NCBI GenBank assembly: GCA_016215155.1 | Contig: JACRLQ010000023.1 | Coordinates: 1-60,411 of the forward strand | Direction of reading: 5' to 3' | DNA from: Nitrospirota bacterium | Lineage (GTDB): Bacteria > Nitrospirota > Thermodesulfovibrionia > Thermodesulfovibrionales > UBA6898 | DNA: 60,411 nucleotides | Part shown: piece after piece, positions 7,237-38,258 of the stretch | Layout of the letters: the number at the start of each line of letters is the position of its first letter | How positions within the stretch are numbered: the first letter of the stretch is position 1 | Translations under genes and position numbers: made by a program | Notes under the pieces: model-generated | What the model saw: the letters and a program-made list of their open reading frames with translations, nothing else | Told to the model about the DNA's origin: nothing | The model's database searches: none

Positions 7237-7396
7237 TTGGCATGCCTCCGGTTATTTATGTTTAAAATTAATTCCAATGAGAACCCATATGATGAGGTGT
7301 ATTTGTCATTGCGGCAGGGTAGTTTAACACAACCGGAGGCCCAAATTCATTCACGGTCCGGTTCCAATTTTATCGGTCAGTGTTGTACCATAATGT

Positions 7397-8074
7397 ATGA
7401 AATCGATTATTTTCACGGCCCTTTTCATCCTTATGCAACCGCTTGTATCGCATGCCGGGTCTTCGATTGCCTTTGACGAACTGTCGTATAACTTCGGCAC
7501 GGTAAGCCAGGCGGAAAAAGCGGAGCATCTGTTTGCTTTCGTAAATAGCGGCGACAGTGACCTAGTGATCGAGAAGGTCTCTTCTTCCTGAGGGTGTACC
7601 GCGGTGATGGCTAGTTCCAGCCGTCTGAAGCCGGGAGAAACCGGGAAAGTCAGTTTGTCTGTAGATCCTGCGGGAAAGAAGGGCCCGATCTCGAAGACCG
7701 CCCAGGTTGTCAGCAATGACCCTGTTCGTCCGGTCATTACCCTGACAGTTACCATGAACGTGAAGGATGACCTGCATATGGGGCAATTAAACGCCGGTCA
7801 GATTTTTAAGGAAGGCTGCGGAAGCTGTCATGTTGAGCAGGGCAGGGGGAAGAAGGGCTTTGACCTTTTCAGGGCCGACTGTTTTATGTGCCATAACGCC
7901 GGAAGAAGCTCCTCCATCACTCAGATGAGCAGAAAACCGGAGCGGGAGCTTTTTAAAGCCATCCGCGACGGAGTGGAAAATTCCATGATGCCGGGATGGG
8001 CCTTGGAAAAGGGCGGCCCGCTAAACGATTCCGAGATAGAATCCCTTGTTCGCATAATCAGGGACCCCAATTGA
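7397..8074 (+). CDS. DUF1573-diheme cytochrome c with in-frame TGA (probable selenoprotein)
   Basis: Two frames (7397-7591 and 7604-8074) are in the same phase and separated only by TGA 7589-7591; read through, they give one 225-residue protein. Order: signal peptide 1-20; DUF1573 domain ~24-120; cytochrome c domain ~130-225 with heme sites CGSCH (141-145) and CFMCH (162-166). DUF1573 proteins have a conserved SCGCT after the (L)VI.KV strand; here it reads S-TGA-G-C-T, so the stop falls exactly at the first conserved Cys (codon 65) with Cys67 kept. A SECIS-like hairpin begins 14 nt after the TGA. I infer selenocysteine insertion; a nonsense mutation or base error is the alternative. There is no clear ribosome site. 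ubiA begins 5 bp after the stop. Confidence 0.75.
7606..7625 (+). promoter_or_regulatory. Candidate bacterial SECIS hairpin
   Basis: GATGGCT (7606-7612) pairs with AGCCGTC (7619-7625) as a 7-bp stem with one G-U pair, closing a 6-nt loop AGTTCC. The loop starts 21 nt after the TGA and has GU at its second and third positions. Bacterial SECIS elements known from fdhF-type genes lie just 3' of the UGA, with the apical loop about 16-37 nt away and a GU near its start. The hairpin lies within the coding sequence, as expected. Confidence 0.65.
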
Positions 8075-8079
8075 ATTCC

Positions 8080-8943
8080 ATGATGAATGTTGTCCCTGAA
8101 AAGCTTATCCTGTACCTCAGGATGATCAAGTTCTCCCATTCGGTCTTTGCCCTTCCTTTTGCGCTGACATCGGCCCTGATCGCGGCTGCGGGCGCCCCTT
8201 CGCTCAGGCAGGTGACCTGGATAATAGTGGCGATGGTAGGGGCAAGGTCCGGGGCGATGGGCCTCAACAGGCTGATAGACAGGGAGATCGACGGAGCAAA
8301 TCCGAGGACCGCCGGGCGCGAACTCCCCAGCGGGGTCATAGGCATATCCGAGACTGTGCTTTTTGTCCTGATATCGTTTGCGGCCATGATTTTTTCGGCC
8401 TACATGCTTAACCCCCTGTGTCTCAAACTTTCTCCTTTGGCCATACTCGTACTCCTCATATATTCTTATACCAAGAGATTCACCTGGGCGTCGCATTTTG
8501 TGCTTGGACTGGCCATATCCGGCGGCCCCCTCGGGGCATGGATCGCGGTGAGGGGCACTATTGACCTCAATATCATACCCCTAACGGTTTCTGTTATATT
8601 CTGGCTTGCGGGGTTTGACGTGCTCTACGCGCTTCAGGACATCGGATTCGACAGAAGCTATGGTCTTTACTCCATACCGGGGAGGTTCGGGGTCAGGAGG
8701 TCTCTGTATCTGGCGAGGTTCTTCCACGTGGTCACCTTCATATTGCTGGTCATAACCGGTCTGATATTCGGACTTGGGGTTTTTTATACGGCAGGTCTGA
8801 TCATAGTTGCCGGACTTTTCTTTTATGAGCATTCTTTATTGAAGGAAGGGGACCTGTCGAAACTCGATATGGCCTTTTTTAACATGAACGGCTATATCAG
8901 CGTGACAATATTTATATTCACGCTGCTTCACTACACATTATGA
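8080..8943 (+). CDS. ubiA: UbiA-family prenyltransferase (4-hydroxybenzoate or futalosine-pathway type)
   Basis: An integral membrane prenyltransferase of quinone synthesis, 287 residues from ATG 8080 (ATG 8083 is equally possible). The first Asp-rich motif is NRLIDREIDGANPRT (~71-85) and the second is LQDIGFDRSYGLYS (~184-197); about eight hydrophobic helices are apparent. It overlaps ubiX by 4 bp (ATGA). With UbiX it could serve ubiquinone or, more likely in an anaerobe with NrfD modules, menaquinone by the futalosine route (MqnP); the sequence alone does not decide. Confidence 0.9.
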   Translation: MMNVVPEKLILYLRMIKFSHSVFALPFALTSALIAAAGAPSLRQVTWIIVAMVGARSGAMGLNRLIDREIDGANPRTAGRELPSGVIGISETVLFVLISFAAMIFSAYMLNPLCLKLSPLAILVLLIYSYTKRFTWASHFVLGLAISGGPLGAWIAVRGTIDLNIIPLTVSVIFWLAGFDVLYALQDIGFDRSYGLYSIPGRFGVRRSLYLARFFHVVTFILLVITGLIFGLGVFYTAGLIIVAGLFFYEHSLLKEGDLSKLDMAFFNMNGYISVTIFIFTLLHYTL

Positions 8944-9533
8944 ATAAATTCATCCTTGCCATAACGGGCGCAACCGGACCGCTCCTGGGATTGAGGGTTT
9001 TAAAGGAACTCTCGAAAAAGGCCGAGGTCCATGTACTGATATCCGGCCAGTCCTTCTCGATAATAAGAGACGAGACAGGGCATGATTTTAGCGGAGAAAG
9101 CGAAGAAGAGGTCCGCGTGAAGCTTGCGGCCTATACCGGCACGAAAGACATTTATTTTCATTCCGAGCATAATTTCGAGGCGCCGGTCGCGAGCGGTTCC
9201 TTCAAGACCGAGGGAATGTTCGTCGTGCCCTGCTCGATGAAGACCCTCGCCGGTATTTCTCACGGTTATTCAAACACACTCGTTGAACGCGCTGCTGACG
9301 TGACGATAAAAGAGGGCAGGAAGCTGGTCATCTGTCCGAGGGAGATGCCCTTCAGCCAGATCCACCTGGAAAACATGCTGGCGCTGGCCCGCATCGGCGT
9401 TAAAATAGCCCCGCCCGTAATAGGTTTCTACCATAGACCTGCCGACCTCGACGGGATGATGGATTTTATAGCGGGCAGGATATTGGACGCCCTCGGCGTG
9501 GAACATGACTTATACCGGAGATGGGGCTCATAA
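8940..9533 (+). CDS. ubiX: UbiX-family flavin prenyltransferase
   Basis: Makes the prenylated FMN cofactor used by UbiD-type decarboxylases. The 197-residue protein shows the flavin-binding opening LAITGATGPLLGLRVL, the PCSMKTLAGISHGYSNTLV segment and the REMPFSQIHLENMLAL region with downstream PPVIGFYHRP. Length is normal. It overlaps ubiA by four bases, so the pair is translationally coupled. No ubiD lies in the window. Confidence 0.95.
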   Translation: MNKFILAITGATGPLLGLRVLKELSKKAEVHVLISGQSFSIIRDETGHDFSGESEEEVRVKLAAYTGTKDIYFHSEHNFEAPVASGSFKTEGMFVVPCSMKTLAGISHGYSNTLVERAADVTIKEGRKLVICPREMPFSQIHLENMLALARIGVKIAPPVIGFYHRPADLDGMMDFIAGRILDALGVEHDLYRRWGS

Positions 9534-10371: not shown

Positions 10372-12963
10372 TTACTCTATGGTCATCCCGTCTATGATCA
10401 ACGCACATGTCCCGGTAATCGTAAATGGCCCTCTGACGGTGGACATAGATGCGATGGTCCTTACTGTGCCGCTACTCCATCCTCCCGAGAGCCTGGGGAC
10501 TACGTTTCCGATATCGTTGCAGGTTATGCCGCCGGACTCTACATATGCGCCGTACTGGACTTTTATCGTATCGGTATTGAGAATCGCCGCATCAAAGAGC
10601 GCGCCGGATATCGTCCCGTCGTTCTCCTGTAAAAGGTTGTTTTTGTAGAGCCAGATATTGCTTGTAACGAAGGTGACCTCTATATCTTTATCACCGGTCA
10701 CATCTTTGAACGTGTACTTCGATGTCGGATCGACGACAACCCAAAACGCTGAGCCGGAAGAATGTACACGGACGTCGGAAATATGATAATAGTTTGGGAA
10801 AAGATTAATCGGGGTCATTGTGCAGATGGAATCCCCGCCATAGGGCACCGGATTTACAGCGCATGTTATGCCGCCTCCGGTGTCGTACTTGACCGTGGCG
10901 TTGATGAAGGAGGTGGGGTCGCCCGGGCCATGTTCGTAGGCGCCGATGTCGGAGCCGGTTCCCTGTGGTCTGGTCATCCCCCTCTGGTCGTTGGGCAGGA
11001 CATTGTTCGGATCGCCCGCGTCAAGGGCAGGGCTTCCGGCAAGGAGCGCCATCGTCAGGGTCGGTCCGCCGTGGTCTGCCAGAGGACCAAGCAGAGGGTC
11101 GGTATTTACGAGGTCGCCAGTGGCGGTGAAGCCGCATTCATTTGTGCTGTCAAGGTTGTGTCCGCCGGATATCAATGCGCCCCCGCCCACTATTGAGCAG
11201 TTCAATGCCGAGGGGGAAGGGCCTGCGATAATGGTGTCACTTGCGTTGACAATGGCGTCTTCTCCCTGAACCTGCAGATTGGCGCTTCGCCCATTTATTG
11301 ACACGATGTTCGAGGCAATAGTGACGTTCTTTAGAGTAGTGGTGTCACCCAGCAAAAAAAGTCCGGCAGCCCAGGCAGCAGAGTTTCCGCTTATAGTCGA
11401 ATTGGCCAGATTAAGGGGGCCCTGAGTTAATATTCCCGCACCTGCATTGCTTGCCTCATTTCCGTTTATGGTGCTGCCTGTTACGTTCACAGCTATACCA
11501 GACATCACTCTGAGTCCGCCGCCCTCAGTGGCAATATTATTGCTTATTGTGCTGTCGGAGAGGTTCAGCGTGCCGCCGGCAACAAGTATCCCTCCGCCCA
11601 CCGAAGTTGCCTCATTTTCTGTAACAACAGAGTTTGAGAGATTCAATGTTACATGTTGAAGCAGAATCCCGCCTCCAATATTTGAGGGATAAGCGCCGCT
11701 TGCCAAACCGTCACTTATAGTAAGACCTGAAATATTCACCGTCCCCCACGATTCCCCATCAACATAAATGACTCTGCTTGCGCCTCCGCCGCTTATCGTG
11801 AGATTCGATGGACCCGGTCCGTTGATCGTCAGGCTTTTATCGATGAAAAGCTCGCCGCTTGATAATGTAATCGTGCCGGTGGCGCTGACGTCGATTATGT
11901 TGCCTGCCGCCGCGTTAGCAATTGTCTGTCTCAGAGAGCCCGGTCCGCTGTCGTTTGTGTTGTTGACCGTAAAAGTGGCGTCAGGCCTGAAATGGCCTAT
12001 TTTGTTTTCGCCGGCATTGGTAAACCATATGTCTCCGTCCGGTCCCGCTGTAATGCCGTACGGCCAGCTTCCGGCAGTCGGCAGGGCGTACTCCTTTATG
12101 ACCCCTGACGTTGTTATGCGGCCTATCTTGTTTCCGCCATTTTCCGTAAACCAGACGTTACCGTCGGGCCCGGCCGTGATGCTCAATGGTCCACTTGATG
12201 CTGTCGGGATCGTAAACTCGGTAATGACCCCTGACGTTGTTATGCGGCCTATCTTGTTTCCTGCGTACTCCGTAAACCAGAGGTTACCATCCGGTCCCGC
12301 CGTGATGCCAAATGGTTCGCTTGCTGTGGTCGGGATTGCAGTCACCCAAAAACTCCCAGCAGTTGTTATACGGCCGATTTTGTATCCGCTGGCCAACGTA
12401 AACCAGAGACTTCCGTCCAATCCCGCTGCGATGCCCAAAGGCGCGCCTCCAGAAATCATTGGATTGGTAAACTCGGTAATGACCCCCGCAGTCGTTATGC
12501 GGCCTATCTTGTTTCCTGCGTACTCCGTAAACCAGAGGTTTCCATCAGGCCCTGCCGTGATGTCCACCGGTACGCTTGAGGCGGTCGGGACGGCAAACTC
12601 GGTAATCACACCCGCAGTTGTGATGCGGCCTATCTTGTTTCCCGTCTCCTCCGTAAACCAGAGGTTTCCGTCCGGCCCCGCCGATATGCCGGAGGGCACA
12701 CTTGAGGCGGTCGGGATCGTGTACTCTGTGATGACCCCTGCAGTCGTTATGCGGCCTATCTTGTTTCCGTCTCTCTCCGTAAACCAAAGGTTACCGTCCG
12801 GCCCCGCCGTGATGTCCGAGGGTACACTTGAGGCGGTCGGGACCGTGTACTCCGTGATAGTTACAGCGCAGTAAGACGACACCGGGACAAAGGCGTACAT
12901 CAGCGCCATGAATAAAATCCACATGCTGCTCAAAAACCTTTGGACGAAGTGCTCGGATCTCAT
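10372..12963 (-). CDS. Secreted Vgb-like seven-bladed propeller / beta-helix protein
   Basis: Start chosen at ATG 12963, six bases after GGGAGG; the ATG at 12984 would place that ribosome site inside the gene. About 863 residues. An N-terminal signal peptide (to ~residue 33) precedes seven 42-residue repeats of the form GPDGNLWFTE..GNKIGRITT, as in virginiamycin B lyase (streptogramin lyase) propellers, so one complete seven-bladed ring. Then comes a CSLREA-like segment (DSGPGSLRQTIANA) opening a right-handed beta-helix with NLS.S.I..N repeats, and a ~170-residue C-terminal region with scattered Cys. Lyase catalysis is not implied; an exported binding or surface protein is the safer reading. 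No sorting signal recognised. Confidence 0.8.
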   Translation of the reverse strand: MRSEHFVQRFLSSMWILFMALMYAFVPVSSYCAVTITEYTVPTASSVPSDITAGPDGNLWFTERDGNKIGRITTAGVITEYTIPTASSVPSGISAGPDGNLWFTEETGNKIGRITTAGVITEFAVPTASSVPVDITAGPDGNLWFTEYAGNKIGRITTAGVITEFTNPMISGGAPLGIAAGLDGSLWFTLASGYKIGRITTAGSFWVTAIPTTASEPFGITAGPDGNLWFTEYAGNKIGRITTSGVITEFTIPTASSGPLSITAGPDGNVWFTENGGNKIGRITTSGVIKEYALPTAGSWPYGITAGPDGDIWFTNAGENKIGHFRPDATFTVNNTNDSGPGSLRQTIANAAAGNIIDVSATGTITLSSGELFIDKSLTINGPGPSNLTISGGGASRVIYVDGESWGTVNISGLTISDGLASGAYPSNIGGGILLQHVTLNLSNSVVTENEATSVGGGILVAGGTLNLSDSTISNNIATEGGGLRVMSGIAVNVTGSTINGNEASNAGAGILTQGPLNLANSTISGNSAAWAAGLFLLGDTTTLKNVTIASNIVSINGRSANLQVQGEDAIVNASDTIIAGPSPSALNCSIVGGGALISGGHNLDSTNECGFTATGDLVNTDPLLGPLADHGGPTLTMALLAGSPALDAGDPNNVLPNDQRGMTRPQGTGSDIGAYEHGPGDPTSFINATVKYDTGGGITCAVNPVPYGGDSICTMTPINLFPNYYHISDVRVHSSGSAFWVVVDPTSKYTFKDVTGDKDIEVTFVTSNIWLYKNNLLQENDGTISGALFDAAILNTDTIKVQYGAYVESGGITCNDIGNVVPRLSGGWSSGTVRTIASMSTVRGPFTITGTCALIIDGMTIE
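11974..12852 (-). repeat. Seven 126-bp tandem repeats
   Basis: Seven in-frame 42-codon units encoding the propeller blades. Units 1-3 and 5-6 are highly similar at DNA level, for example gcggcctatcttgtttcc recurring at 126-bp spacing, while unit 4 is the most diverged. Confidence 0.85.
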
Positions 12964-13271
12964 CGCGTTCCTCCCTTTACCCATCTGACGCGGGCATAAA
13001 ATTACTGCCGATATTTTAGGGTGCGGATACCAACTGATTCGGAAAAGATGTAAGGTTTTATTCGCGGAATTTTCCGCGCAGCCGCGGGATGCCGGGTCTC
13101 AGCGAACTGGGAATTCCGATCGTCCACTGACTATAATATACCGGTGTCGTGTCAACAATCAACCCAAATCCCGATATAATTACTGTGCAATGCGGTTAAT
13201 TCGCAGCTTAGGAACAACTCCATATCTGCCCTTATTCTTGTGCTGTAAGCGATCTGCTGTATAATAACTAC
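12964..13271. other. Intergenic region between divergent genes
   Basis: This 308-bp spacer holds a 16-bp near-palindrome at 13063-13078 (CGCGGAA-TT-TTCCGCG), which could be an operator or a hairpin without a T-run, and the PBP promoter at its right end. No ORF or RNA gene is recognised. Confidence 0.5.
13238..13265 (+). promoter_or_regulatory. Promoter of the PBP gene, predicted leaderless
   Basis: TTGTGC (13238-13243), a 16-bp spacer and a perfect TATAAT (13260-13265) end only six bases before the ATG at 13272. The expected transcription start falls on the start codon, and no Shine-Dalgarno sequence exists, so a leaderless mRNA is inferred. Confidence 0.55.
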
Positions 13272-26443: not shown

Positions 26444-29404
26444 ATGAAAAAGGAAATAATACATGCGACAAAATCAATAAACGGTTTTAACGCGACGCGT
26501 AAGATTCTCCTGACATCGAGGGCGGGTCTGCTGCTGTTGTTGCCCCTGATAATTAGTTTGTTTGTGTTTCAGGGATGGTTCGTCGCGTCGGATGCCGAGG
26601 GGGCGGTAACGAACCTTCAGCAGTTTCCGTCAACCCCCCAGATGACGGCCACTACCGGAAACCTCTCAGGCACGTTCACGATTTCAAGCGGACCAAATCG
26701 TCTTTTTGTCGTCGTGGTATCAGCCGCCAACAACAACGGCTCTACCATGACATTCGCTGCGACATACGGCGGGGTCGCCCTGACTCAGGCCGCCACGAGT
26801 ACCTCTGGCTCCCAAAAATCATCAACATGGATCGGCTACCTTGATGAGACCGGCATAAGTTCGAAGACCTCGGATGACGTAGCCGTCACGATTACCGGCT
26901 CTCATACGGGCGCGATAGGATACATGGCAAGTTACCAGAATGTAAGCCAGTCAGCGCCTATAACCGCCAACGGCGGTTATTATTTTGATAACACATCCAC
27001 TACAGCAATCGGTCCTCTGGCTGCCAATACCGGGGGATACGGAATATACATCTGGGGCGGGCAAAACACCGTCACGAGAACGTCCGATACCGAGGCTTAC
27101 ACTGAACACTCGGACCTGCAAACGACTTACGGCAATCTCAAGGATTTCGGGGTATGCTCCAAAGCCATCTCGGCATCGACTAATCCGACGATTACATGGA
27201 GCGGCAATGTTAACCTTGCATCACTTTCGCTTGTTACGCTGAACTGGGCAGTCCCCGCAGTCACTGCCACTTCACCGAATATAAAGGCACGTGGCAGTTC
27301 CCAGGCAACCGTTACTATCACGGGCGCCAACTTTGGCGCGGGTGCAGCGGTCTCCTTTAATGATTCGCAAATCACGGTCGGCACGGTGACCGTAGTGAGT
27401 CCGACAGCAATAACTGTGCCTGTTACAGTCGGCGCATCCGCAACACTTGGCGCGCATGATGTGACGGTAACCAATACAGATGGAGGAAGCGGAACCGGAA
27501 CGGGAGTGTTCGTTGTTTTTGGACCGCCGACGGTCTCATCCACAACTCCAAACATACGGGGCCAGGGGGCCGTCAGTCAGAACATAACGATTACCGGGAC
27601 CAATTTCTTAAGCAGTGCAACGGCAAGTTTCAGCGGCACGGGTATCACGGTCAATTCAACTACATACGTGAGTGCAACATCCCTGACCGCGAATATAACT
27701 ATTGCCTCAAATGCGACGACGGACGGCAGGAACGTCACGGTTAATAACAACGATGGCGCCGGTACAGGAACAGGGACTAATGTGTTTACTGTCAGCGCAT
27801 CACCGACGGTCACATCGACAAGTCCAAACAGCCGGGGGCAGGGGGCAACCAATAAGAACATAACTATATATGGGACGAATTTCGCGAGCGGCGCAACGGC
27901 AAGCTTCAGCGGCACGGGTATTACGGTAAACTCAACAACATTCACCAATTCAACAATAGTGACCGCGAACGTAACGATCGCGGCAGGTGCAGCGACAGGC
28001 AGCCGGAACGTAACGGTAACGAACCTTGATGCGGGAGTTGGGACAGGGACTAATGTGTTCACTGTTAATGCGGCCCCCGCGGTCACGTCTGTAACCCCAA
28101 ACAGCAAACCGCAGGGGGTCAGCAATCAGAATATAACGATAACGGGGACCGGGTTTGTCAGCGGCGCCGGTCTTGCGGCGAGCTTCAGCGGCACCGGTAT
28201 CACGGTCAACTCCACGACATATGTGAGTGCCACGTCCCTGACCGCGAACATAACGATCGCTGAAAGTGCGACCGCGGGCAGCAGGGACGTAACCGTGACG
28301 AACCCTGACGGAGGCGCCGGTACAGGCACCGGAGCATTTACCGTCAATGCAGGACCCAAGGTTACATCGACAACTCCAAACAGCCGGCTTCAGGGTTCCA
28401 GCAATCAGAATATAACGATAACGGGGACCGGGTTTGTGAGCGGCGCCGGTCTTGCGGCAAGCTTCAGCGGCACGGGTATCACGGTAAACTCCACGACATA
28501 TGTGAGTGCCACATCCCTGACGGCAAATATAACGATCGCCGGAAATGCGACGACAGGCAGCCGGAACGTCACCGTAACGAACCCTGATGGAGGTGCCGGC
28601 ACGGGGACGGGAGTATTCACGGTCACTTCTCCCCCAACGGTAATATCGGCTTCACCTAATCAAAGGGCCCAGAACACCGCCCTGACGACGGTGACCATCA
28701 CAGGCGCCGGTTTTCAGGCGGGTGCGACGGTGTCGTTTAACGATGCAAACATAACCCTGGGGGCGGTGACTGTTGTAAACGCAACGACGATAACTCTGCC
28801 GGTGACGGTTACAGCTTCAGCAGCGTTGGGCGCGCATAACGTAACGGTAACAAACCTTGATGGAGGTGTCGGCACGGGGACGGGAGTATTCACGGTCAAC
28901 GTAAATACGACACCTACTGTCTCATCCGCAACTCCAAACAGCCGGGGCCAGGGGACCAGCAATCAGAACATAACGATTACCGGTACTAATTTCAGGAGCA
29001 ATGCAACGGCAAGTTTCAGCGGCACGGGTATTACGGTAAACTCAACGACGTATGTGAGTGCAACATCCCTGACCGCGAACATAACTGTTGCCGCGGGTGC
29101 TGCGACGGGGTTACGGAGCGTAACGGTAAATAACAACGATGGCAGCACCGCGGGAACAGGGACTAACGTGTTCACGGTTAATGCGTCACCTACGGTTACA
29201 TCGACAACTCCTAACAGCCGGCTTCAGGGTTCCAGTAATCAGAATATAACGATAACGGGGACCGGTTTTGTGAGCGGTTCCGGTCTTGCGGCAAGTTTCA
29301 GCGGCACGGGTATCACGGTAAACTCAACGACGTATGTGAGTGCAACATCCCTGACGAGGCACCGGCACGGGCACAGGGGTGTTCACTGTCAATGCCGGAC
29401 CTAA
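26444..29404 (+). CDS. Giant surface protein, N-terminal part (IPT/TIG repeats), ends at a frameshift
   Basis: 986 codons from ATG 26444 (aaggggg upstream). Signal/TM segment ~28-48; a ~220-residue N-terminal domain rich in Ser/Thr/Gly; then eight IPT/TIG Ig-like repeats of ~80-90 residues opening (V/K)(T/S)STTPN and containing SFSGTGITVNSTTYVSATSLT. In repeat eight, just after SATSLT, the frame is lost and 17 unrelated residues lead to a stop at 29402-29404. The same repeat pattern resumes in the +1 frame, so this and the next entry are one gene. The break is a real deletion, an assembly collapse, or a base error. Confidence 0.8.
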   Translation: MKKEIIHATKSINGFNATRKILLTSRAGLLLLLPLIISLFVFQGWFVASDAEGAVTNLQQFPSTPQMTATTGNLSGTFTISSGPNRLFVVVVSAANNNGSTMTFAATYGGVALTQAATSTSGSQKSSTWIGYLDETGISSKTSDDVAVTITGSHTGAIGYMASYQNVSQSAPITANGGYYFDNTSTTAIGPLAANTGGYGIYIWGGQNTVTRTSDTEAYTEHSDLQTTYGNLKDFGVCSKAISASTNPTITWSGNVNLASLSLVTLNWAVPAVTATSPNIKARGSSQATVTITGANFGAGAAVSFNDSQITVGTVTVVSPTAITVPVTVGASATLGAHDVTVTNTDGGSGTGTGVFVVFGPPTVSSTTPNIRGQGAVSQNITITGTNFLSSATASFSGTGITVNSTTYVSATSLTANITIASNATTDGRNVTVNNNDGAGTGTGTNVFTVSASPTVTSTSPNSRGQGATNKNITIYGTNFASGATASFSGTGITVNSTTFTNSTIVTANVTIAAGAATGSRNVTVTNLDAGVGTGTNVFTVNAAPAVTSVTPNSKPQGVSNQNITITGTGFVSGAGLAASFSGTGITVNSTTYVSATSLTANITIAESATAGSRDVTVTNPDGGAGTGTGAFTVNAGPKVTSTTPNSRLQGSSNQNITITGTGFVSGAGLAASFSGTGITVNSTTYVSATSLTANITIAGNATTGSRNVTVTNPDGGAGTGTGVFTVTSPPTVISASPNQRAQNTALTTVTITGAGFQAGATVSFNDANITLGAVTVVNATTITLPVTVTASAALGAHNVTVTNLDGGVGTGTGVFTVNVNTTPTVSSATPNSRGQGTSNQNITITGTNFRSNATASFSGTGITVNSTTYVSATSLTANITVAAGAATGLRSVTVNNNDGSTAGTGTNVFTVNASPTVTSTTPNSRLQGSSNQNITITGTGFVSGSGLAASFSGTGITVNSTTYVSATSLTRHRHGHRGVHCQCRT

Positions 29405-30210
29405 AGTCACATCGACATCACCCAATACCAGGGGCCGCAACAGCGCCCAGACCACTGTCACCATCACAGGGACCGGTTTTGCGGGCGGGGCAACGGTGAA
29501 TTTCAACGATGCAGGCATAACCCAGGGCGCCGTAACTGTAGTAAACGCAACAACGATAACACTGCCTGTTACCGTGACCGTGACTGCAACACCGGGCGCG
29601 CATAACGTAAGCGTTACGAATACTGATGGCGGGGCAGGGACAGGAAGTCAGGTTTTCACCGTGACCGCAGCCCCTTCGGTTGCCTCTGCGTCACCCAATC
29701 AAAGGCCCCGTGGCAGCGCCCAGACCACTGTCACCATCACAGGGACCGGGTTTGCGAGCGGCGCTGCAGTCTCATTCAATGATGCGAACATAACCCTGGG
29801 TGCGGTGACTGTTGTCAATTCGTCTACAATAACACTGCCTGTCACCGTGACAGGGACGGCAACCGTCGGCAGCCATAATGTTACGGTTACAAACGCTGAC
29901 GGCGGAACCGCAACCGGCACAGGCGTATTCACCGTTACGAATGCGCCGACAGTCACATATACATCGCCTAATGCGTTGGCGCAGGGCAGCGCGCCCACGA
30001 CGGTGACGATAACCGGGACTGGTTTTGCCGCCGGGTCCACGGTTTCTTTCAATGATGCGGGCATAACCCTCGGGGCGGTGACCGTTGTAAATGCCACAAC
30101 GATAACCCTGCCTGTTACCGTGACTGCCACGGCGGCCGCAGGTTCACATAACGTGACGGTGACAAACGCAGACGGCGGCTCCGGGACCGGCACAGCTGTT
30201 TTTACGGTCG
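27270..30210 (+). repeat. Array of about eleven IPT/TIG-coding repeats
   Basis: Units of ~240-280 bp share long identical stretches such as agcttcagcggcac, acatccctgac and aacataacgat. One unit (29,195-29,400) is truncated and carries the frameshift. Such near-identical repeats favour unequal recombination and also short-read assembly collapse. Confidence 0.85.
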
Positions 30211-33200
30211 GGACCTCTACTTATGGCTCGGTCCCTTACTGGGACAACGGCGCAGGAGCAGTATTCGCCCCTCAGCAATGGCCGACCGAAGCTCAGTGGG
30301 TCCCCTATACCTGGGGAAGTGCGTTCATTAAAGACCCGCGTGTCCTTGACCCGTCAAACGGAGGCACGAGGCCCCAGAATTACGTCAATGTAAGCTCAGG
30401 ATGTCCTGATCAGTCGCTTCCCAGCATGTATGTTTATTATGCAAACAATACCCTTTATTTCAGATGGAGGGTTGAGCAGATACCAAACACCTATGCGACA
30501 GGACCCGGGCCGGGCGCCTTCAGCGATGTCGATCCATGGAAGGCCGCCCAGTGGACTGTGTTCCTGGATACGGACGGCGACGGGTTCAGGGAATTCGGCA
30601 TGCAGCTTGACGGTTCCACGGGCATGCCGGCCTGGCCTGTGGATATCCTCCGCACGGTATACAGCAACACTCTCGATCATAATATGTCCCCCCACGACAG
30701 GGACATCTTCGAACTCTGGCACAACCCGACGGCCTTTGTGGACGGGACCTCAGGCAGCACCACCGACACCATTCTTAATTTTCATGGCACGAACGCGCCT
30801 GATACAAGTTGGCCTAATGGTCCTGCTGAGGTGGTCTGGGACTATGGGACCACCAGAGCTATCAATATAACGGATTACGACCCGCGCCTGTCTATTGATA
30901 AGGGCATCTCAGGGGCGCAACAGTGCGGCCTGACACAGGAAAACGAGTACTTTGTCGACTACCAGATCCCCGTGGGCATGTTAAGCAACGGCTCTTATAA
31001 CTTCGACTGCCAGAACCCGACGGGGCTTTTCTTTGCGACGGCAAACAGTCTTACAAATCCTTTCCAGAAGGACGTCGTCGCAAATACCGGTTATACCGGA
31101 GCATCAGAGAACTGCGCGCCTTATGGCGATCAGGTTGTCCTTTGCGGGCCGACCGGACCCACGATGGTCCCTCAGCCTGTAGTTGACTGGGTCACTACAT
31201 CAACATCGGGGTGCAACCAGACACTCACCGCAAAGGTGCGCGGCTCGGTTGTCCAGTCTTCCTGCAGCCCGGATATCACCGGCGCTGATTTCTATTATTA
31301 TTACGACGCAAACGCAAACGGTCTGGCGGATGACGGAGGGGCATGGCATCTGCTGGGCGCCGGCTCCAAGTCCTCAACGGACCAGACTAACTGGACCTAT
31401 CTGTGGAACACGACAGGAAGCGGCCTGCCGGCAGGAAACTATCTTGTCGGTGTTGATACGGTAAACAGCATCGGCTATCACACGTGGAGTTACAGCAGCA
31501 CGCCGATAGGCGTATCTCCGCCAAATTTTGCGAACCCTTCGCCCAAGCCAGGCCTGGTTTATGGATCGACCCTTTTAACCGGCGCATGCGGAGAGACGGC
31601 CATCGTCGATAAAACCGTGACTCCGGGCAAGACGATTATTAACTCGACCGTGCAATTTACAATTACAGTGCATAATAACACCTCCGGCGATATGCAGGTA
31701 AACAGTGTGACGGATTACCTGCCGCAGGGTGTGGACGGATATTCATTTGCCTACATAAGCTCTCCGGCGCCGACAGGGACGGGCGCCCTCTCAGCCCCGG
31801 GGGCGCCGACGGTGTCCGGGACTACCGTCACCTGGAACTTTTCTCCCGCCCGTACGATTTCCGCCGGGCAGAATGCGACGATCACGTTCACTTCACAGGC
31901 GCCTTCTGTTGAAGGCACCTATCAGAACACCTGCGGGGCGAACGCCTATGTCACGTCCTGGGGAATGACAAAGAACATAAACTGCAATTATGTGACGATC
32001 GAGGTCGGCGCGCCGAGGCTTACGATCGCAAAGACCGCGGATGTGACTTCAAGAGCGGTAGGTGAGACGATAAATTATACGGTCACCTATTCAAACGATT
32101 CGCCCTTTACGGCAACCGGCGCCTATATCACTGACGTCCTGCCTGCCGGGCTTACGTTTGTATCAGCGGCGAACGACGGAACGTATAATTCGTCAAACAG
32201 GACGATAACCTGGTACATCGGCACAATTTATGGAGGCACGGGACCTTTTACCGTCTCCTTTGTGGCGACGGTCACGAACCCGTATCCGGCGACTGAGCCA
32301 ATCAAGCTGAAAAATGTCGCGACGATCTATTCAAACGAGACGACGCCGAAACAGGCGGACGTTACGGTCATCATAACCGGTCTTTCGCGTCCAATCCTGA
32401 CGATCCAGAAGATCGGAAACAAGGTTTTCGTCGACCCAACCCAAGCCTCCCCTGCCGACAGGGTCACCTACACAATTTCCTATTCGAATGTCGGCAATGC
32501 AACCGCAACCAATTCGATAATATCGGATACAGTGCCCCCCGGCTGGACCTATGTCTCTTCTGCGGCCGGGACAAATTGCCCGGCCGGCACAACCACCGGC
32601 AACCCCGTCACCCTGATAAACTGGAATCTGGGGAGCGTGGCAGTTGGCGTGACAGGTACCTGCAACCTGATATTAAGGGCCGCTGACTCTCAGTCCAGCC
32701 CTTATACCGGAGACAACCCCTCCACCAATACAGCCAGCATCCGGGCGGATGGCTTCCCTCCGGTGAGCAGCAGCTTTACCGTGGCCCTAACCGGTGCAAT
32801 GCAATGTACCGGCACGAAATACTTTTTCCATGAGGAAACGACAAACGTCGGGTATGACGGGGTAAAAGAGATAGCAACTGTTTCTTATCCCAGTTCGGGT
32901 GCCGCGGCATACAAGCACGTCAACTGGATGTCACAGGGATGCGATATAGGTTCCTATTCCCCCATAGTAGATTTTTATATGGACCCGGTTCTGGTCAACA
33001 CCGGGACTGCGTCCAGCGTCACCTCCTCATGGTATCTGACCAAGACAAACGGGAACCCCTCAAACGTAAAAGTTTCCGTATATGACTATAACCCGACAGA
33101 CGGGAACAAGACCCTTCTGGCATCAGTAGTTCATTCCATAAAGGGGGCGAGCCAGACACCGTCTCTAGATTCCGACACCTTTATTTTAAATCAAGCGCCC

Positions 33201-36200
33201 TTGGCCGGGCATCGTCTGTACTGGCTATATGAAGGATGCACCACTGCGCAAAATCAGATCCTCGACGTTTACTATTACTATGACGGCATATATACGGATA
33301 GTAACAGCACGGTCCCGACCCCAAGCCATTTCTGCTATCAGGGGACCTCGGCGCTCATGAACAAAACCGTTGACAAGATGACTGCAATCCCAGGGGACAC
33401 CCTGACATACACGATGACCTTCGGCAATAACGGCGCCACCAACTTAACCGGAGCGCAGATCACGGATACACTGCCGACCGGAACGACGTATGTGAGTGCG
33501 ACGCTCAACGGAGCTGCGACTACCTGTTCGCAGGCCGGTCAGATTATCACCTGTGGGGTGAGGTCGAACGAGACGCCTGCCCCCGCGGTGGGAACGATAA
33601 CCGTCGGGCAGCAGGGAACGCTTGTCATTATCGCCACGGTGAACAATCCCTTCCCCGCAGGCCAGTATGAACTTATAAACAGTGCGACCCTGACGACCAG
33701 TCAGGCCGCGCCGATCACTGCCACGGCAAGGACGGTTGTGACGACGGACATCTCTATTTCGAAGTCTGTCGACAAAACACTGCTGTATCCCGGCGATATG
33801 GCCACGTTTACATTGAGTGTCAAAAACAGCAGCGGCGCAAACATAACGGTGAACATAGGCGATGTGTTGCCTACGGACACATACTTTTATTATGTAGGCT
33901 GCTCGGATGCATGCGGCTGGGATTCAGTGTCTCACACCGTTACGTGGACAAATATAACCGTGAATGCCAACTCTTCACGAAGCGTTACGTTCCAGATGAG
34001 GGTTGACACTGTAGGTGTGCCCATCGGGACTACGTATAAAGACAATACCGGAGTAGTAACCTACGGTTCACAACAATACAGCAACACCGTGACAGTGGCG
34101 ATACTGAACAACCCAAACATCAATATCACAAAGAGTGTTTCGCCCGCGGGTCCTGTAAAGGCCGGTGATACGATTACCTGGAACATGACAGTGACTAACA
34201 ACGGTCCTCAGAGCGCGTTTGGGGTGCTTGTGACGGATCCGATTATCCCCTATACGACATATAAGACCGGGAGCCTGACGTATGAGTTAACGGCCCAGAC
34301 GGATGCAAACGATTCACCAACCGACACCTCCTATTACGATGCAGTCAATGACCGTGTTGTTTATGAAGTGGGCACTCTGGCCGGCGGTGCGTCTAGGACG
34401 ATGAGCTTCAGCGCTATTGTTGACAGGCCGATGCCCAGTGGTACTACGGTCCTTACGAATACAGCAACGGTTTCGTCGAGCAATACGGGTACGAAGCAGG
34501 CGACGGCGACCATAAATGTAACTGATGCCCCGTCATTTGTGCTCAATAAGTATGCTGCATCCCTTGTTGCCTCGGGTCAAAATGTTACCTTTACCGTCTA
34601 CTACAAGAACACCGGCGGCGCAACCGCTACCTCGGCTGTAGTGACTGATACGCTTGCCGCAAACCTTACCTTTGTCTCCGCCGACGAAGGCGGGACTTAC
34701 GATTCCGGCACCAGAACGGTAACCTGGAACCTCGGGACACTCCCTCCGGATGCCGAGGGTTCGTTGCATCTTACAGTAACCCCCGCGGTCTGCGGGACAT
34801 ATTCAAATACAGCTACGATCTCCTCGGCGCAGACAGCCCCGTTGAACTCGAATATTACATCGACGGACGTATGCTGGTTGGAGCCGACCAAAAAGACCAC
34901 TACGGATCCGACTCTTATGACGGTAACGAATACTTCCACAGGCACACTGGCGACATATATCCTGACTGTCAGCAACCCGACCGGCACCACAGCAACAGGC
35001 GTTCAGGTCACGGACAATTTTCCTTCGGGCTTCAGCTATGACAGCAGTGTAACCCCTGTGTTTGGCGGAACAGGAACTAACAGGACTGCCCTGGTTAACC
35101 CGTCAAACGGGGCGACTCATCCGACCTGGGGGACCTGGGACATAAACGCCGGAGGCTCTCTTACTATCGCGTTTACGGCCAAGGTTGCATCGACAGTCCC
35201 TGAAGGCATATACGATAATGGGGTAGCGGCAACAAGCACAAACAATAGTGTGATGCTCTTCGATGAACTCGCCACGGCGGCTGACGACGTTAAGGTCGTT
35301 GTTCCGGTTGATCTGTCTGTAACCAAGACAGTCAATATTGCCGAGCCTCAGGGGACCGGGCCGGGGGCCGAGTTTGTATATACAATTACTTTGACGAATG
35401 TGGGAGTCAACCATGCCTTCAAGGTAAATCTTTCCGACCTCTTGCCGTCAGACATTACATATGTTTCAAATACCGCCAGCCAGGGGTCTTACAGCAACGC
35501 GACCGGTATCTGGGACGTCGGCAGGGTCGACAGATATGCCGGCGCAACTCTCACAATAACCGCATTCCCAAATGACGGCACCGCGGGAATGACGATCGAC
35601 AACTGTGCTTATCTGACTTCATCCGTGCCCCGCGAACCCAGTTATAGTGATCCCGATGACTGGAGTTGCGCAAGCATTAAGCCGACCCATGTCACGCTCT
35701 CGGGCTTCAGGGCTTTTGTCGAGGGGGGCAGCGTCGTTGTCGAATGGGAGACGGCTGCCGAGCGTAATACGGTGGGCTTTTATGTAGAACGTTATCACGA
35801 AAAGACCGGAGAGTATGTCCGTGTCAACAAGAAACTTCTGCCGGGTCTTATTACCTCCCGCGCGGGAGGCACATACCGCTTGATAGATGAAGCTGCCCCT
35901 GCCTCGGGAAGGCTTCTATATAGGCTTCTGGAGGTTGAATCAAAGGGCAACAAGGTTACTTACGGGCCATTCCATGTTGATCTTGGAGGCTCGGCGCTTA
36001 AGATAGAGAAGAAATTCGTCTCAGACGGCGCCATCGAGGTCACTATCCGCAGAAAGGTCGTGTCTTCCACCCGTCCGGCTGATCTGTCCAGACAGGGCTT
36101 TGAACAGGTCACCGGGGTTTACAGCAGGAAGGCTCACAGGCCTTCGCCACAAACCGCTGGCCGCTTTGCCGCGGCAAAGGCAGGGGCCTCAGCTGTTCAG

Positions 36201-38258
36201 CCGGCGGCTGTTCAGGCCGGAACCGCCATAAAGATGGCCGTCTCCGAAACAGGGCTTTATTATATCGATGCTTCGGATATCTCGGCCCTGCTGAATATAA
36301 CCCAGTCTTCGGTCCGCGCCCGGATAGGGGCAGGGGACTTTGCCCTGACGACCGGCGGGCGTCAGGTCGCCTATACCGGGGCGGAAGGCAACGCGGGCAT
36401 TTTCTTTTACGGGAAGGCCCTCGAAAGCGTGTATACCGGCGCCAATATATACTGGATCAAAGAGGGCAGGGGCCTCCTGATGCAGACCGTGGGCGGTGAC
36501 AAGGAGACGCTCGAAGGCGTTGCCGCCGATGCCTTCGCCGATACAATTCATGCCGAGCAGGATGTCTGGAGTGACACAAGCCTCGCCAAAGACCCAAATT
36601 CAGACTATTGGTATTGGGATTATGTCATGGCGGACTACCCCGGGTTTGACTATAAAGAGTTCAGTTTCAGGGCGGACTCTGTTTCCGCCGCGACCGGGAC
36701 CGCGACTATCGGGGCCAGGCTGCAATCGATCGTACCGTTCCGCAGCCGGGCTGTTATAACACTTAACGGGAGTACGACCATTTTCGACGGCATATGGGAT
36801 GGACTTGACCCAAAGACGGTCGTCGCGAACATCGACCAGGGCCTTCTCAGGGAAGGTGACAATATCATTGGAGTCAGAGCCATGCTTGAGTCCGGCGTTG
36901 ATTTCAGCGCATTTTACATAGACTCATTTGATGTTACCTATGCTCGGCGCTTTGAGGCTGTAAATGACTCGCTGAGTTTCAGATCGGAGGGCAGTCCCGT
37001 CATCACCGTCGATGGTTTTACTACGCCTGACATTTCAGTGTTCGAAATTACCAATTCTCAGAGGCCTCGGCTGGTCACGGCCGCGGAGGTACTTGACCAG
37101 GGCGGCGCCAGTTACAGCGTGAGGTTCTATCCGGTAAGGACAGCCGCCTCCTACATCGCGGTTACGACAGGTTCCATTAAGCGGGCCGACGCGGCGGCTG
37201 ACCGGCCTTCTGACCTCAGGAAAAATGATAACGCCGCGGAGTATGTCGTGATAGCCCCTGCTGAGTTGAAAGATGCAGTCGCGGGTCTTGCCGAATACAG
37301 AAGGGGCCAGGGCATGACCGTCAAGGTCGCGATGCTTGAGGACATAATGGACGAATTCAACTTTGGGGTGAGCGATCCCAATGCGATTAGAACTTTTCTC
37401 GAATATGCCTATAAGAACTGGAAGAAAAAGCCCCGATATGCGGCGCTGGCCGGCAGCGGGACTTTCGATTATAAAAATTATGGGGGGTATGGCGGTAATC
37501 TGATTCCCGCTCTTATGGTAGGATCACCGTGGGGACTTTCGCCCTCGGACAATGTGCTGGGTGATTTTAACAACGACGATGTCCCTGAGATCATCGTCGG
37601 CAGGCTGCCTGTGCTGAGTTCAGCGGAACTTCAGGTGCTTATAAACAAGATCATGACGTTTGAGGCCTCACACAGCGAAGGGACCATCCTTATTGCTGAC
37701 AAGGCCGACGGAGGCGGTGATTTTCCGAAAGACAGTAATGAAATCGCCGGACTTTTCACCGCCGGCTATCCCCTGCAGAGGATTTATCTGCAGGAAAATC
37801 AGCTTGCGCAGGCCCGGAAATCCCTGTTTGACGGCATGAAGGCAGGCACAAAATTTATCAACTATCTCGGTCACGGCACAGTCGAGCGCTTATCCGAAGG
37901 CGGTCTGCTCACAAAGGATGATGCGGCCGGACTTATTAATAGCGCCTATCCCGTGATGACCGCGCTGACATGCTCTTCCGGCCATTACGCGCTTCCGGGC
38001 TTCGATGCCCTGATGGAGGCGCTGATCATAAGAAACGGCGGAGGTATCGTATCTTCCTGGGCGCCGACGGACTGGTCATACAATGCTGATGCGAAGATCC
38101 TCGGAGAGGGTTTCTATAAGGCGGTCTTTCGTCCCGTCGTGACGACCATGGGTGATGCCGTCACAAGGGCCATGACTGCATATAAGGCGTCCGGCAGGGC
38201 CTCTTACGAGCTCAATATATTCAATATAATCGGAGATCCGGCCCTGAGGCTTAAATAG
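29379..38258 (+). CDS. Giant surface protein, C-terminal part: IPT, DUF11 repeats, gingipain-like C25 peptidase domain
   Basis: 2959 codons, resuming at VFTVNAG after the frame break; the GTG at 29379 is only the first available codon. Order: three IPT/TIG repeats to ~30,200; a ~300-residue domain with D.DGDG (30,230-31,550); about nine DUF11-type repeats with V.DTLP.G.TYVSA (31,600-35,640); a linker; a propeptide-like beta domain; and a C-terminal peptidase C25 domain (~37,200-38,258). The C25 dyad is visible: His in NYLGHGTVE (~37,870) and Cys in ALTCSSGHY (~37,970). Ends NIIGDPALRLK with no sorting tail recognised. The RiPP genes follow within 35 bp. Intact, the gene would encode about 3,940 residues. 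Confidence 0.85.
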   Translation: MFTVNAGPKVTSTSPNTRGRNSAQTTVTITGTGFAGGATVNFNDAGITQGAVTVVNATTITLPVTVTVTATPGAHNVSVTNTDGGAGTGSQVFTVTAAPSVASASPNQRPRGSAQTTVTITGTGFASGAAVSFNDANITLGAVTVVNSSTITLPVTVTGTATVGSHNVTVTNADGGTATGTGVFTVTNAPTVTYTSPNALAQGSAPTTVTITGTGFAAGSTVSFNDAGITLGAVTVVNATTITLPVTVTATAAAGSHNVTVTNADGGSGTGTAVFTVGTSTYGSVPYWDNGAGAVFAPQQWPTEAQWVPYTWGSAFIKDPRVLDPSNGGTRPQNYVNVSSGCPDQSLPSMYVYYANNTLYFRWRVEQIPNTYATGPGPGAFSDVDPWKAAQWTVFLDTDGDGFREFGMQLDGSTGMPAWPVDILRTVYSNTLDHNMSPHDRDIFELWHNPTAFVDGTSGSTTDTILNFHGTNAPDTSWPNGPAEVVWDYGTTRAINITDYDPRLSIDKGISGAQQCGLTQENEYFVDYQIPVGMLSNGSYNFDCQNPTGLFFATANSLTNPFQKDVVANTGYTGASENCAPYGDQVVLCGPTGPTMVPQPVVDWVTTSTSGCNQTLTAKVRGSVVQSSCSPDITGADFYYYYDANANGLADDGGAWHLLGAGSKSSTDQTNWTYLWNTTGSGLPAGNYLVGVDTVNSIGYHTWSYSSTPIGVSPPNFANPSPKPGLVYGSTLLTGACGETAIVDKTVTPGKTIINSTVQFTITVHNNTSGDMQVNSVTDYLPQGVDGYSFAYISSPAPTGTGALSAPGAPTVSGTTVTWNFSPARTISAGQNATITFTSQAPSVEGTYQNTCGANAYVTSWGMTKNINCNYVTIEVGAPRLTIAKTADVTSRAVGETINYTVTYSNDSPFTATGAYITDVLPAGLTFVSAANDGTYNSSNRTITWYIGTIYGGTGPFTVSFVATVTNPYPATEPIKLKNVATIYSNETTPKQADVTVIITGLSRPILTIQKIGNKVFVDPTQASPADRVTYTISYSNVGNATATNSIISDTVPPGWTYVSSAAGTNCPAGTTTGNPVTLINWNLGSVAVGVTGTCNLILRAADSQSSPYTGDNPSTNTASIRADGFPPVSSSFTVALTGAMQCTGTKYFFHEETTNVGYDGVKEIATVSYPSSGAAAYKHVNWMSQGCDIGSYSPIVDFYMDPVLVNTGTASSVTSSWYLTKTNGNPSNVKVSVYDYNPTDGNKTLLASVVHSIKGASQTPSLDSDTFILNQAPLAGHRLYWLYEGCTTAQNQILDVYYYYDGIYTDSNSTVPTPSHFCYQGTSALMNKTVDKMTAIPGDTLTYTMTFGNNGATNLTGAQITDTLPTGTTYVSATLNGAATTCSQAGQIITCGVRSNETPAPAVGTITVGQQGTLVIIATVNNPFPAGQYELINSATLTTSQAAPITATARTVVTTDISISKSVDKTLLYPGDMATFTLSVKNSSGANITVNIGDVLPTDTYFYYVGCSDACGWDSVSHTVTWTNITVNANSSRSVTFQMRVDTVGVPIGTTYKDNTGVVTYGSQQYSNTVTVAILNNPNINITKSVSPAGPVKAGDTITWNMTVTNNGPQSAFGVLVTDPIIPYTTYKTGSLTYELTAQTDANDSPTDTSYYDAVNDRVVYEVGTLAGGASRTMSFSAIVDRPMPSGTTVLTNTATVSSSNTGTKQATATINVTDAPSFVLNKYAASLVASGQNVTFTVYYKNTGGATATSAVVTDTLAANLTFVSADEGGTYDSGTRTVTWNLGTLPPDAEGSLHLTVTPAVCGTYSNTATISSAQTAPLNSNITSTDVCWLEPTKKTTTDPTLMTVTNTSTGTLATYILTVSNPTGTTATGVQVTDNFPSGFSYDSSVTPVFGGTGTNRTALVNPSNGATHPTWGTWDINAGGSLTIAFTAKVASTVPEGIYDNGVAATSTNNSVMLFDELATAADDVKVVVPVDLSVTKTVNIAEPQGTGPGAEFVYTITLTNVGVNHAFKVNLSDLLPSDITYVSNTASQGSYSNATGIWDVGRVDRYAGATLTITAFPNDGTAGMTIDNCAYLTSSVPREPSYSDPDDWSCASIKPTHVTLSGFRAFVEGGSVVVEWETAAERNTVGFYVERYHEKTGEYVRVNKKLLPGLITSRAGGTYRLIDEAAPASGRLLYRLLEVESKGNKVTYGPFHVDLGGSALKIEKKFVSDGAIEVTIRRKVVSSTRPADLSRQGFEQVTGVYSRKAHRPSPQTAGRFAAAKAGASAVQPAAVQAGTAIKMAVSETGLYYIDASDISALLNITQSSVRARIGAGDFALTTGGRQVAYTGAEGNAGIFFYGKALESVYTGANIYWIKEGRGLLMQTVGGDKETLEGVAADAFADTIHAEQDVWSDTSLAKDPNSDYWYWDYVMADYPGFDYKEFSFRADSVSAATGTATIGARLQSIVPFRSRAVITLNGSTTIFDGIWDGLDPKTVVANIDQGLLREGDNIIGVRAMLESGVDFSAFYIDSFDVTYARRFEAVNDSLSFRSEGSPVITVDGFTTPDISVFEITNSQRPRLVTAAEVLDQGGASYSVRFYPVRTAASYIAVTTGSIKRADAAADRPSDLRKNDNAAEYVVIAPAELKDAVAGLAEYRRGQGMTVKVAMLEDIMDEFNFGVSDPNAIRTFLEYAYKNWKKKPRYAALAGSGTFDYKNYGGYGGNLIPALMVGSPWGLSPSDNVLGDFNNDDVPEIIVGRLPVLSSAELQVLINKIMTFEASHSEGTILIADKADGGGDFPKDSNEIAGLFTAGYPLQRIYLQENQLAQARKSLFDGMKAGTKFINYLGHGTVERLSEGGLLTKDDAAGLINSAYPVMTALTCSSGHYALPGFDALMEALIIRNGGGIVSSWAPTDWSYNADAKILGEGFYKAVFRPVVTTMGDAVTRAMTAYKASGRASYELNIFNIIGDPALRLK

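What the first reader, a model, noticed from the sequence alone, without database searches (positions are those of the whole stretch)
7397..8074. Candidate new selenoprotein: DUF1573-cytochrome c with Sec at the conserved SCGCT Cys
An in-frame TGA replaces exactly the first Cys of the DUF1573 motif SCGCT (reads S-TGA-G-C-T) while codons before and after continue the same domain and lead into a diheme cytochrome. A 7-bp hairpin with a GU-containing 6-nt loop starts 14 nt after the TGA, with loop distance 21 nt. A random nonsense mutation would be unlikely to hit a Cys position and be followed by a SECIS-like hairpin. I know of no described DUF1573 selenoprotein. A Sec-Gly-Cys pair beside c-hemes suggests redox or thiol chemistry in the periplasm.
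Basis: partly seen in the sequence, partly recalled or inferred. Interest (0 to 1): 0.92.

Follow-up and report, generated by a model that had tools for sequence, protein, structure and literature searches.

The report
Selenium-containing DUF1573 diheme cytochrome
This bacterial gene really does read a stop codon as the rare selenium amino acid selenocysteine, giving a secreted protein that joins a selenium-sulfur redox pair to two heme groups; selenium-containing proteins of this domain family were already known, but I found no description of the heme-fused form.

Summary
The 225-residue frame 7397-8074 has one in-frame TGA (7589-7591), exactly at the first Cys of the DUF1573 SCGCT motif, followed by a 7-bp hairpin and two CXXCH heme sites. 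It is not a pseudogene or a sequencing error. 29 DUF1573-diheme fusions (this one included) and 33 other DUF1573 genes of the phylum have TGA at this codon. The sequence after it is under purifying selection. The hairpin is conserved in TGA genes, with compensatory changes in 6 of 7 pairs, and absent from Cys homologues. The genome has selA, selB, tRNA-Sec and selD. All 62 genomes with a TGA form carry SelB and/or tRNA-Sec; ten Cys-fusion genomes of two other families carry neither.

The claim 'no described DUF1573 selenoprotein' is wrong: UGC-type DUF1573 (OS_HP2) has been listed since 2007-2008. What I did not find described is the diheme fusion.

Likely work: a periplasmic selenol/thiol relay passing electrons between a thiol partner and c hemes. 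In Cys-form relatives the gene is beside, or fused to, a DsbA-like gene, and most fusion genomes tested lack DsbB and VKOR. That function is inferred, not shown. Verdict: real; new variant of a known kind.

The parts
7397..8074 (+). Selenoprotein gene: signal peptide + Sec-DUF1573 + diheme cytochrome c (225 aa plus stop TGA)
7397..7456 (+). Putative N-terminal signal sequence (MKSIIFTALFILMQPLVSHA), judged by eye
   Evidence: N-terminal helix in model
7466..7756 (+). DUF1573 (ASH/HYDIN-like Ig fold) domain, residues 24-120
   Evidence: PF07610 82.4 bits; model pLDDT 91 matches 2qsv and HYDIN PapD-like domains
7589..7591 (+). Sec UGA codon (residue 65), at first Cys of SCGCT; partner Cys67 at 7595-7597
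7606..7625 (+). bSECIS hairpin: 7-bp stem, AGUUCC loop (7613-7618), 21 nt after UGA
   Evidence: fits bSECIS model in PMC13188914
7817..7831 (+). Heme-binding motif 1, CGSCH (residues 141-145)
   Evidence: invariant
7880..7894 (+). Heme-binding motif 2, CFMCH (residues 162-166)
   Evidence: invariant
7988..7990 (+). Invariant Met198 (MPG), likely distal heme ligand
   Evidence: invariant; role inferred from class I cytochromes c
8080..8943 (+). UbiA-family prenyltransferase, 5 bp downstream on the same strand; directly follows the fusion in 7 genomes
8940..9533 (+). UbiX-like flavoprotein (Pfam Flavoprotein), overlapping the ubiA end

Best explanation
This is a genuine SECIS-dependent selenoprotein. 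UGA 7589-7591 is decoded as selenocysteine by SelB and tRNA-Sec, directed by the hairpin at 7606-7625. The product is exported. Its DUF1573 Ig-like domain presents a Sec-Gly-Cys pair that can cycle between selenol/thiol and selenenylsulfide, and its C-terminal domain carries two covalent c hemes. The selenoprotein identity is shown as far as sequence can show it (about 0.97). The most likely work is electron relay: the Sec-Gly-Cys pair takes electrons from a periplasmic dithiol, most plausibly a DsbA-like oxidoreductase, and passes them through the hemes to the respiratory chain. That step is inference (about 0.4).
For: TGA at the same codon in all 29 TGA-bearing fusions and 33 other UG-motif DUF1573 genes. 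Purifying selection after the TGA: dN well below dS in every pair where dS could be estimated. Hairpin: synonymous-shuffle z -15.3 for 62 Sec genes against +0.5 for 21 Cys genes; 7 of 7 pairs in 32 genes against a shuffled mean of 0.7. 93.6% of cells paired, 6 of 7 pairs with two-sided changes, 0 of 500 shuffles as high. tRNA-Sec, SelB, a 478-residue SelA frame and SelD with its own in-frame TGA. All 62 Sec-form genomes have SelB and/or tRNA-Sec; ten Cys-form genomes of families f20 and f26 have neither. Redox role: a DsbA-like gene lies directly upstream in 9 of 10 f20/f26 Cys-form genomes, and a DsbA-like CGHC stretch is fused in frame downstream in G111. A Sec-DsbA (UPHC) lies two genes upstream in G013, and the own genome has one on another contig. 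No DsbB in 24 genomes, VKOR over cut-off in 4.
Against: No mass spectrometry, selenium-labelling or heme data. RNAalifold on the ungapped alignment gave only a weak consensus (about -1 kcal/mol); outer pairs break in some members. For function: in this genome and most Sec relatives no DsbA gene is adjacent; the neighbours are ubiA/ubiX or unrelated genes. Some relatives (e.g. G008) have Sec-DsbA but no DUF1573 fusion, no DsbB and no VKOR, so the fusion cannot be the only way to reoxidise DsbA. pTM 0.64 leaves the distance from Sec65 to the hemes unsettled.
Confidence: 0.9

Rival explanations
1. Pseudogene or sequencing error: the TGA is a nonsense change or assembly error in a normal Cys protein.
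For: Single TGA in an otherwise open frame; draft genome of 101 contigs.
Against: Same TGA in 29 fusion genes of six families, purifying selection after it, conserved hairpin, machinery present.
Confidence: 0.01
2. UGA is a real stop with programmed readthrough or near-cognate insertion of another residue; or a short DUF1573 fragment and an internally started cytochrome (GTG 7604) are made separately.
For: An internal GTG start gives a 156-residue frame; readthrough needs only UGA and context.
Against: The stop would cut an Ig-like domain in two. TGA replaces Cys of homologues, is followed by a hairpin fitting the bSECIS model, and occurs only with SelB/tRNA-Sec; Cys forms lack the hairpin.
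Confidence: 0.02
3. Selenoprotein as described, but not a DsbA-type relay: it acts on small sulfur, selenium or metal species (polysulfide, thiosulfate, mercury, arsenic, copper) or on peroxide.
For: A Cys-form paralogue subfamily lies downstream of rhodanese genes; DUF1573 is also fused to SCO1/SenC; in G013 a cytochrome-peroxidase-like gene is adjacent.
Against: The closest Cys orthologues sit with DsbA-like genes, one fused in frame.
Confidence: 0.35
4. Selenoprotein that works in reverse: it takes electrons from hemes to reduce periplasmic disulfides (for example apocytochrome CXXCH thiols).
For: Same anatomy; Sec often serves reductive chemistry (general knowledge).
Against: c hemes at usual potentials are poor reductants for disulfides (general knowledge); no cytochrome c maturation genes were recognised among the recurrent neighbours.
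Confidence: 0.15

Closest known systems
DUF1573 selenoprotein / OS_HP2 (PF07610, UGC motif; NCBIfam NF041425)
   Same: Same domain, Sec at the first Cys of the CGC motif (UGC); all 50 aligned fusion proteins match NF041425.
   Different: Here fused to a diheme cytochrome c; 73.9 bits, below the curated cut-off of 100. The seven stand-alone Sec homologues tested also fall below it.
Class I / cbb3 subunit III-type cytochrome c
   Same: Cytochrome_CBB3 match, CXXCH and invariant Met.
   Different: Two CXXCH motifs only 21 residues apart, with one C-terminal Met region.
Sec-DsbA-like proteins (PF01323, UxxC)
   Same: Secreted-type thiol redox selenoproteins; one is present in the same genome.
   Different: Thioredoxin fold, no heme; possible partner, not homologue.
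DsbB / VKOR
   Same: Proposed job (draining electrons from DsbA) would match.
   Different: No sequence relation; membrane quinone-linked enzymes.
Listed Sec-containing cytochromes: ExtKL multiheme, tetrathionate-reductase-family octaheme
   Same: Selenocysteine in a c-type cytochrome (PMC13188914).
   Different: Different families, no DUF1573.

Membership tests
Bacterial SECIS-dependent selenoprotein | In-frame UGA aligned with Cys in homologues, coding continued after it | tested here: met
Bacterial SECIS-dependent selenoprotein | bSECIS: 3-9 nt loop, 4-16 bp stem, G in first two loop positions, 16-37 nt from UGA, MFE <= -7.5 (model quoted from PMC13188914) | tested here: met
   6-nt AGUUCC loop, 7 bp, 21 nt, -13.2 kcal/mol; covariation
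Bacterial SECIS-dependent selenoprotein | SelA, SelB, tRNA-Sec and SelD in the genome | tested here: met
   (SelA recognised from the frame beside selB, not by a profile search)
Bacterial SECIS-dependent selenoprotein | Selenium found in the protein | not testable with these tools
   needs mass spectrometry or Se-75 labelling
DUF1573 (PF07610) | Profile match above gathering score | tested here: met
   82.4 against 26.1 bits
OS_HP2 (NF041425) | Curated score cut-off of 100 bits | tested here: not met
   73.9 bits; stand-alone homologues 73.7-84.4. Related, not filed as OS_HP2 proper
OS_HP2 (NF041425) | UGC motif in the DUF1573 domain | tested here: met
   motif as listed in PMC13188914
c-type cytochrome | CXXCH heme sites, axial Met, export signal | tested here: met
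   two invariant CXXCH and Met198, PF13442 over cut-off; signal judged by eye
c-type cytochrome | Covalent heme attached | not testable with these tools
   needs purified protein
DsbA-oxidising system (works like DsbB/VKOR) | Oxidises a DsbA-like protein | not testable with these tools
   only genetic association and scarcity of DsbB/VKOR

The most novel reading that the evidence does not exclude
A soluble, selenium-dependent thiol-to-cytochrome conduit that drains electrons from DsbA-like proteins into c-type cytochromes, standing in for DsbB/VKOR in Nitrospirota-type bacteria, with a Sec/Cys switch between lineages that largely follows presence of the Sec machinery.
Probability: 0.22. Interest if true: 0.8.

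Novelty: new variant of a known kind. Interest (0 to 1): 0.5.

Why it matters
DUF1573 is common and of unknown function. A fused diheme cytochrome, linkage or fusion to DsbA-like and SCO1 domains, and a Sec/Cys exchange that largely follows the Sec machinery all point to redox work at the CGC/UGC pair and make it directly testable. Automatic annotation is likely to cut such genes at the UGA into a DUF1573 fragment and a cytochrome.

Tried and rejected
Pseudogene or error: rejected by conservation. Alternative code with TGA as sense: not favoured, since TGA also ends this gene (8072-8074) and many homologues. Rfam scan of 7300-8200 found nothing above gathering scores; the best, IRE_II at 7367-7396 (23.5 against 30 bits), is taken as chance. 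RNAalifold consensus was weak; the pair count with controls was more informative. The genome-contig scan gave seven close relatives from Nitrospirae-named genomes plus mostly Acidobacteriota DUF1573 Cys forms. A literature search for DUF1573 returned three papers; in the two on selenoproteins the passages found name only a DUF1573 domain protein, no cytochrome fusion. In the PDB fold search the 50 rows shown match the Ig-like half (2qsv, HYDIN, CEP192).

Full report
What is there. Reading frame 7397-8074 encodes a putative signal sequence, a DUF1573 domain and a cytochrome c domain with two CXXCH motifs. One in-frame TGA lies at codon 65, the first Cys position of SCGCT. The terminal codon is also TGA, so TGA serves as a stop in this genome.

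Is it conserved? A six-frame search of the window's genome and 100 relatives, then of 296 genomes across the phylum, found many homologues. In 29 DUF1573-diheme fusions (this one included) from families f1, f2, f6, f7, f16 and f17, TGA sits at exactly this codon. 33 further DUF1573 genes with UG motifs have it there too, giving 62 in all. 21 fusion homologues have Cys at the site and no stop. In all 50 fusions residue 65 (Sec or Cys), C67, both CXXCH motifs and Met198 are invariant. dN is well below dS on both sides of the TGA in every pair where dS could be estimated, so the cytochrome part is under selection as protein.

SECIS. The hairpin at 7606-7625 (7 bp, AGUUCC loop, 21 nt after UGA) meets every limit of the bacterial SECIS model quoted in PMC13188914. 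Keeping the protein fixed and shuffling synonymous codons, the 62 Sec genes are far more stable than expected (z -15.3) and 32 have all seven pairs (shuffled mean 0.7). The 21 Cys genes show no signal (z +0.5). Among the 29 fusions, 93.6% of cells pair, 6 of 7 pairs show changes on both sides, and none of 500 shuffles reaches the percentage paired or the covariation score. The sequences are related, so these numbers are not independent trials, but the Sec/Cys contrast is clear.

Machinery. The genome has tRNA-Sec, SelB over cut-off, an open 478-residue SelA frame beside selB and SelD with an in-frame TGA at its CAGU motif. All 62 genomes with a TGA form (UG-motif or UxxC) have SelB and/or tRNA-Sec: G057 and G099 lack a full SelB hit but have tRNA-Sec, while G262 lacks the tRNA hit but has SelB. 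Ten Cys-fusion genomes of families f20 and f26 have neither. G102 and G111 (f21) keep the machinery with a Cys form, and some Sec genomes also hold a separate Cys paralogue, so the match is not perfect. The best tree needs three Sec/Cys changes, though one is not excluded by its well-supported branches.

What it may do. The structure model (pLDDT 91, pTM 0.64) shows an Ig-like DUF1573 domain like 2qsv and HYDIN domains, followed by a helical heme domain; the arrangement of the two is uncertain. Context differs between Sec and Cys forms. In this genus and some relatives the gene directly precedes ubiA and ubiX. In nine of ten f20/f26 Cys-form genomes a DsbA-like (Thioredoxin_4/DSBA) gene lies directly upstream; in f21 genome G111 a DsbA-like CGHC stretch continues in frame, and in G141 the DsbA-like part follows in a broken frame. 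In Sec genome G013 a DsbA-like selenoprotein (UPHC) lies two genes upstream, with a cytochrome-peroxidase-like gene between. The own genome encodes such a Sec-DsbA on another contig. None of 24 genomes tested has DsbB and only four have VKOR over cut-off. I infer a thiol/selenol-to-heme electron relay, perhaps reoxidising DsbA-like proteins. This is association, not proof; G008 has Sec-DsbA without the fusion, DsbB or VKOR.

What is known. DUF1573 with a UGC motif is a listed selenoprotein family (OS_HP2): PMC2398784 (2008), PMC9312934 (2022) and PMC13188914 (2026) list it, the last two citing Zhang and Gladyshev 2007. NCBIfam has NF041425; our proteins match it, the window protein and the stand-alone ones tested below its cut-off. 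Only three papers of the library mention DUF1573 at all, and I found no diheme fusion in them.

Noticed in passing
L113, L118 (G085, G053); L115, L116, L117, L119: Longer DUF1573 proteins with TGA in a UxxC (UKAC/URAC/UKRC/URRC) motif instead of UGC: G085 (tested) is a SCO1/SenC fusion and G053 looks alike; of the others, G051 (tested) has a carboxypeptidase-regulatory-like domain.
   Followed up: partly
L168 (own genome C54:20762-21328): DsbA-like selenoprotein with UPHC active site; TGA conserved in most close relatives.
   Followed up: partly
L148 (G111), L146 (G141): Cys-form fusion runs on into a DsbA-like CGHC domain (G111, cut by contig end); in G141 the DsbA-like part follows in a broken frame.
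   Followed up: partly
L086, L090, L092, L095, L096, L105: Separate Cys paralogue subfamily (heme motifs 22 residues apart) downstream of a rhodanese gene, in genomes that use Sec.
   Followed up: partly
L102, L108, L109: Stand-alone Sec-DUF1573 genes whose second Cys is lost (U-Gly-Val, U-Gly-Ala, U-Gly-Gly), so Sec may act alone there.
   Followed up: no
window 26444-38258: Two adjacent very long reading frames (986 and 2959 aa) with TIG and DUF11 domains and a C-terminal peptidase C25 (gingipain-like) domain.
   Followed up: no
window 10372-12984 (-): 870-aa secreted-looking protein with virginiamycin B lyase-family propeller repeats.
   Followed up: no
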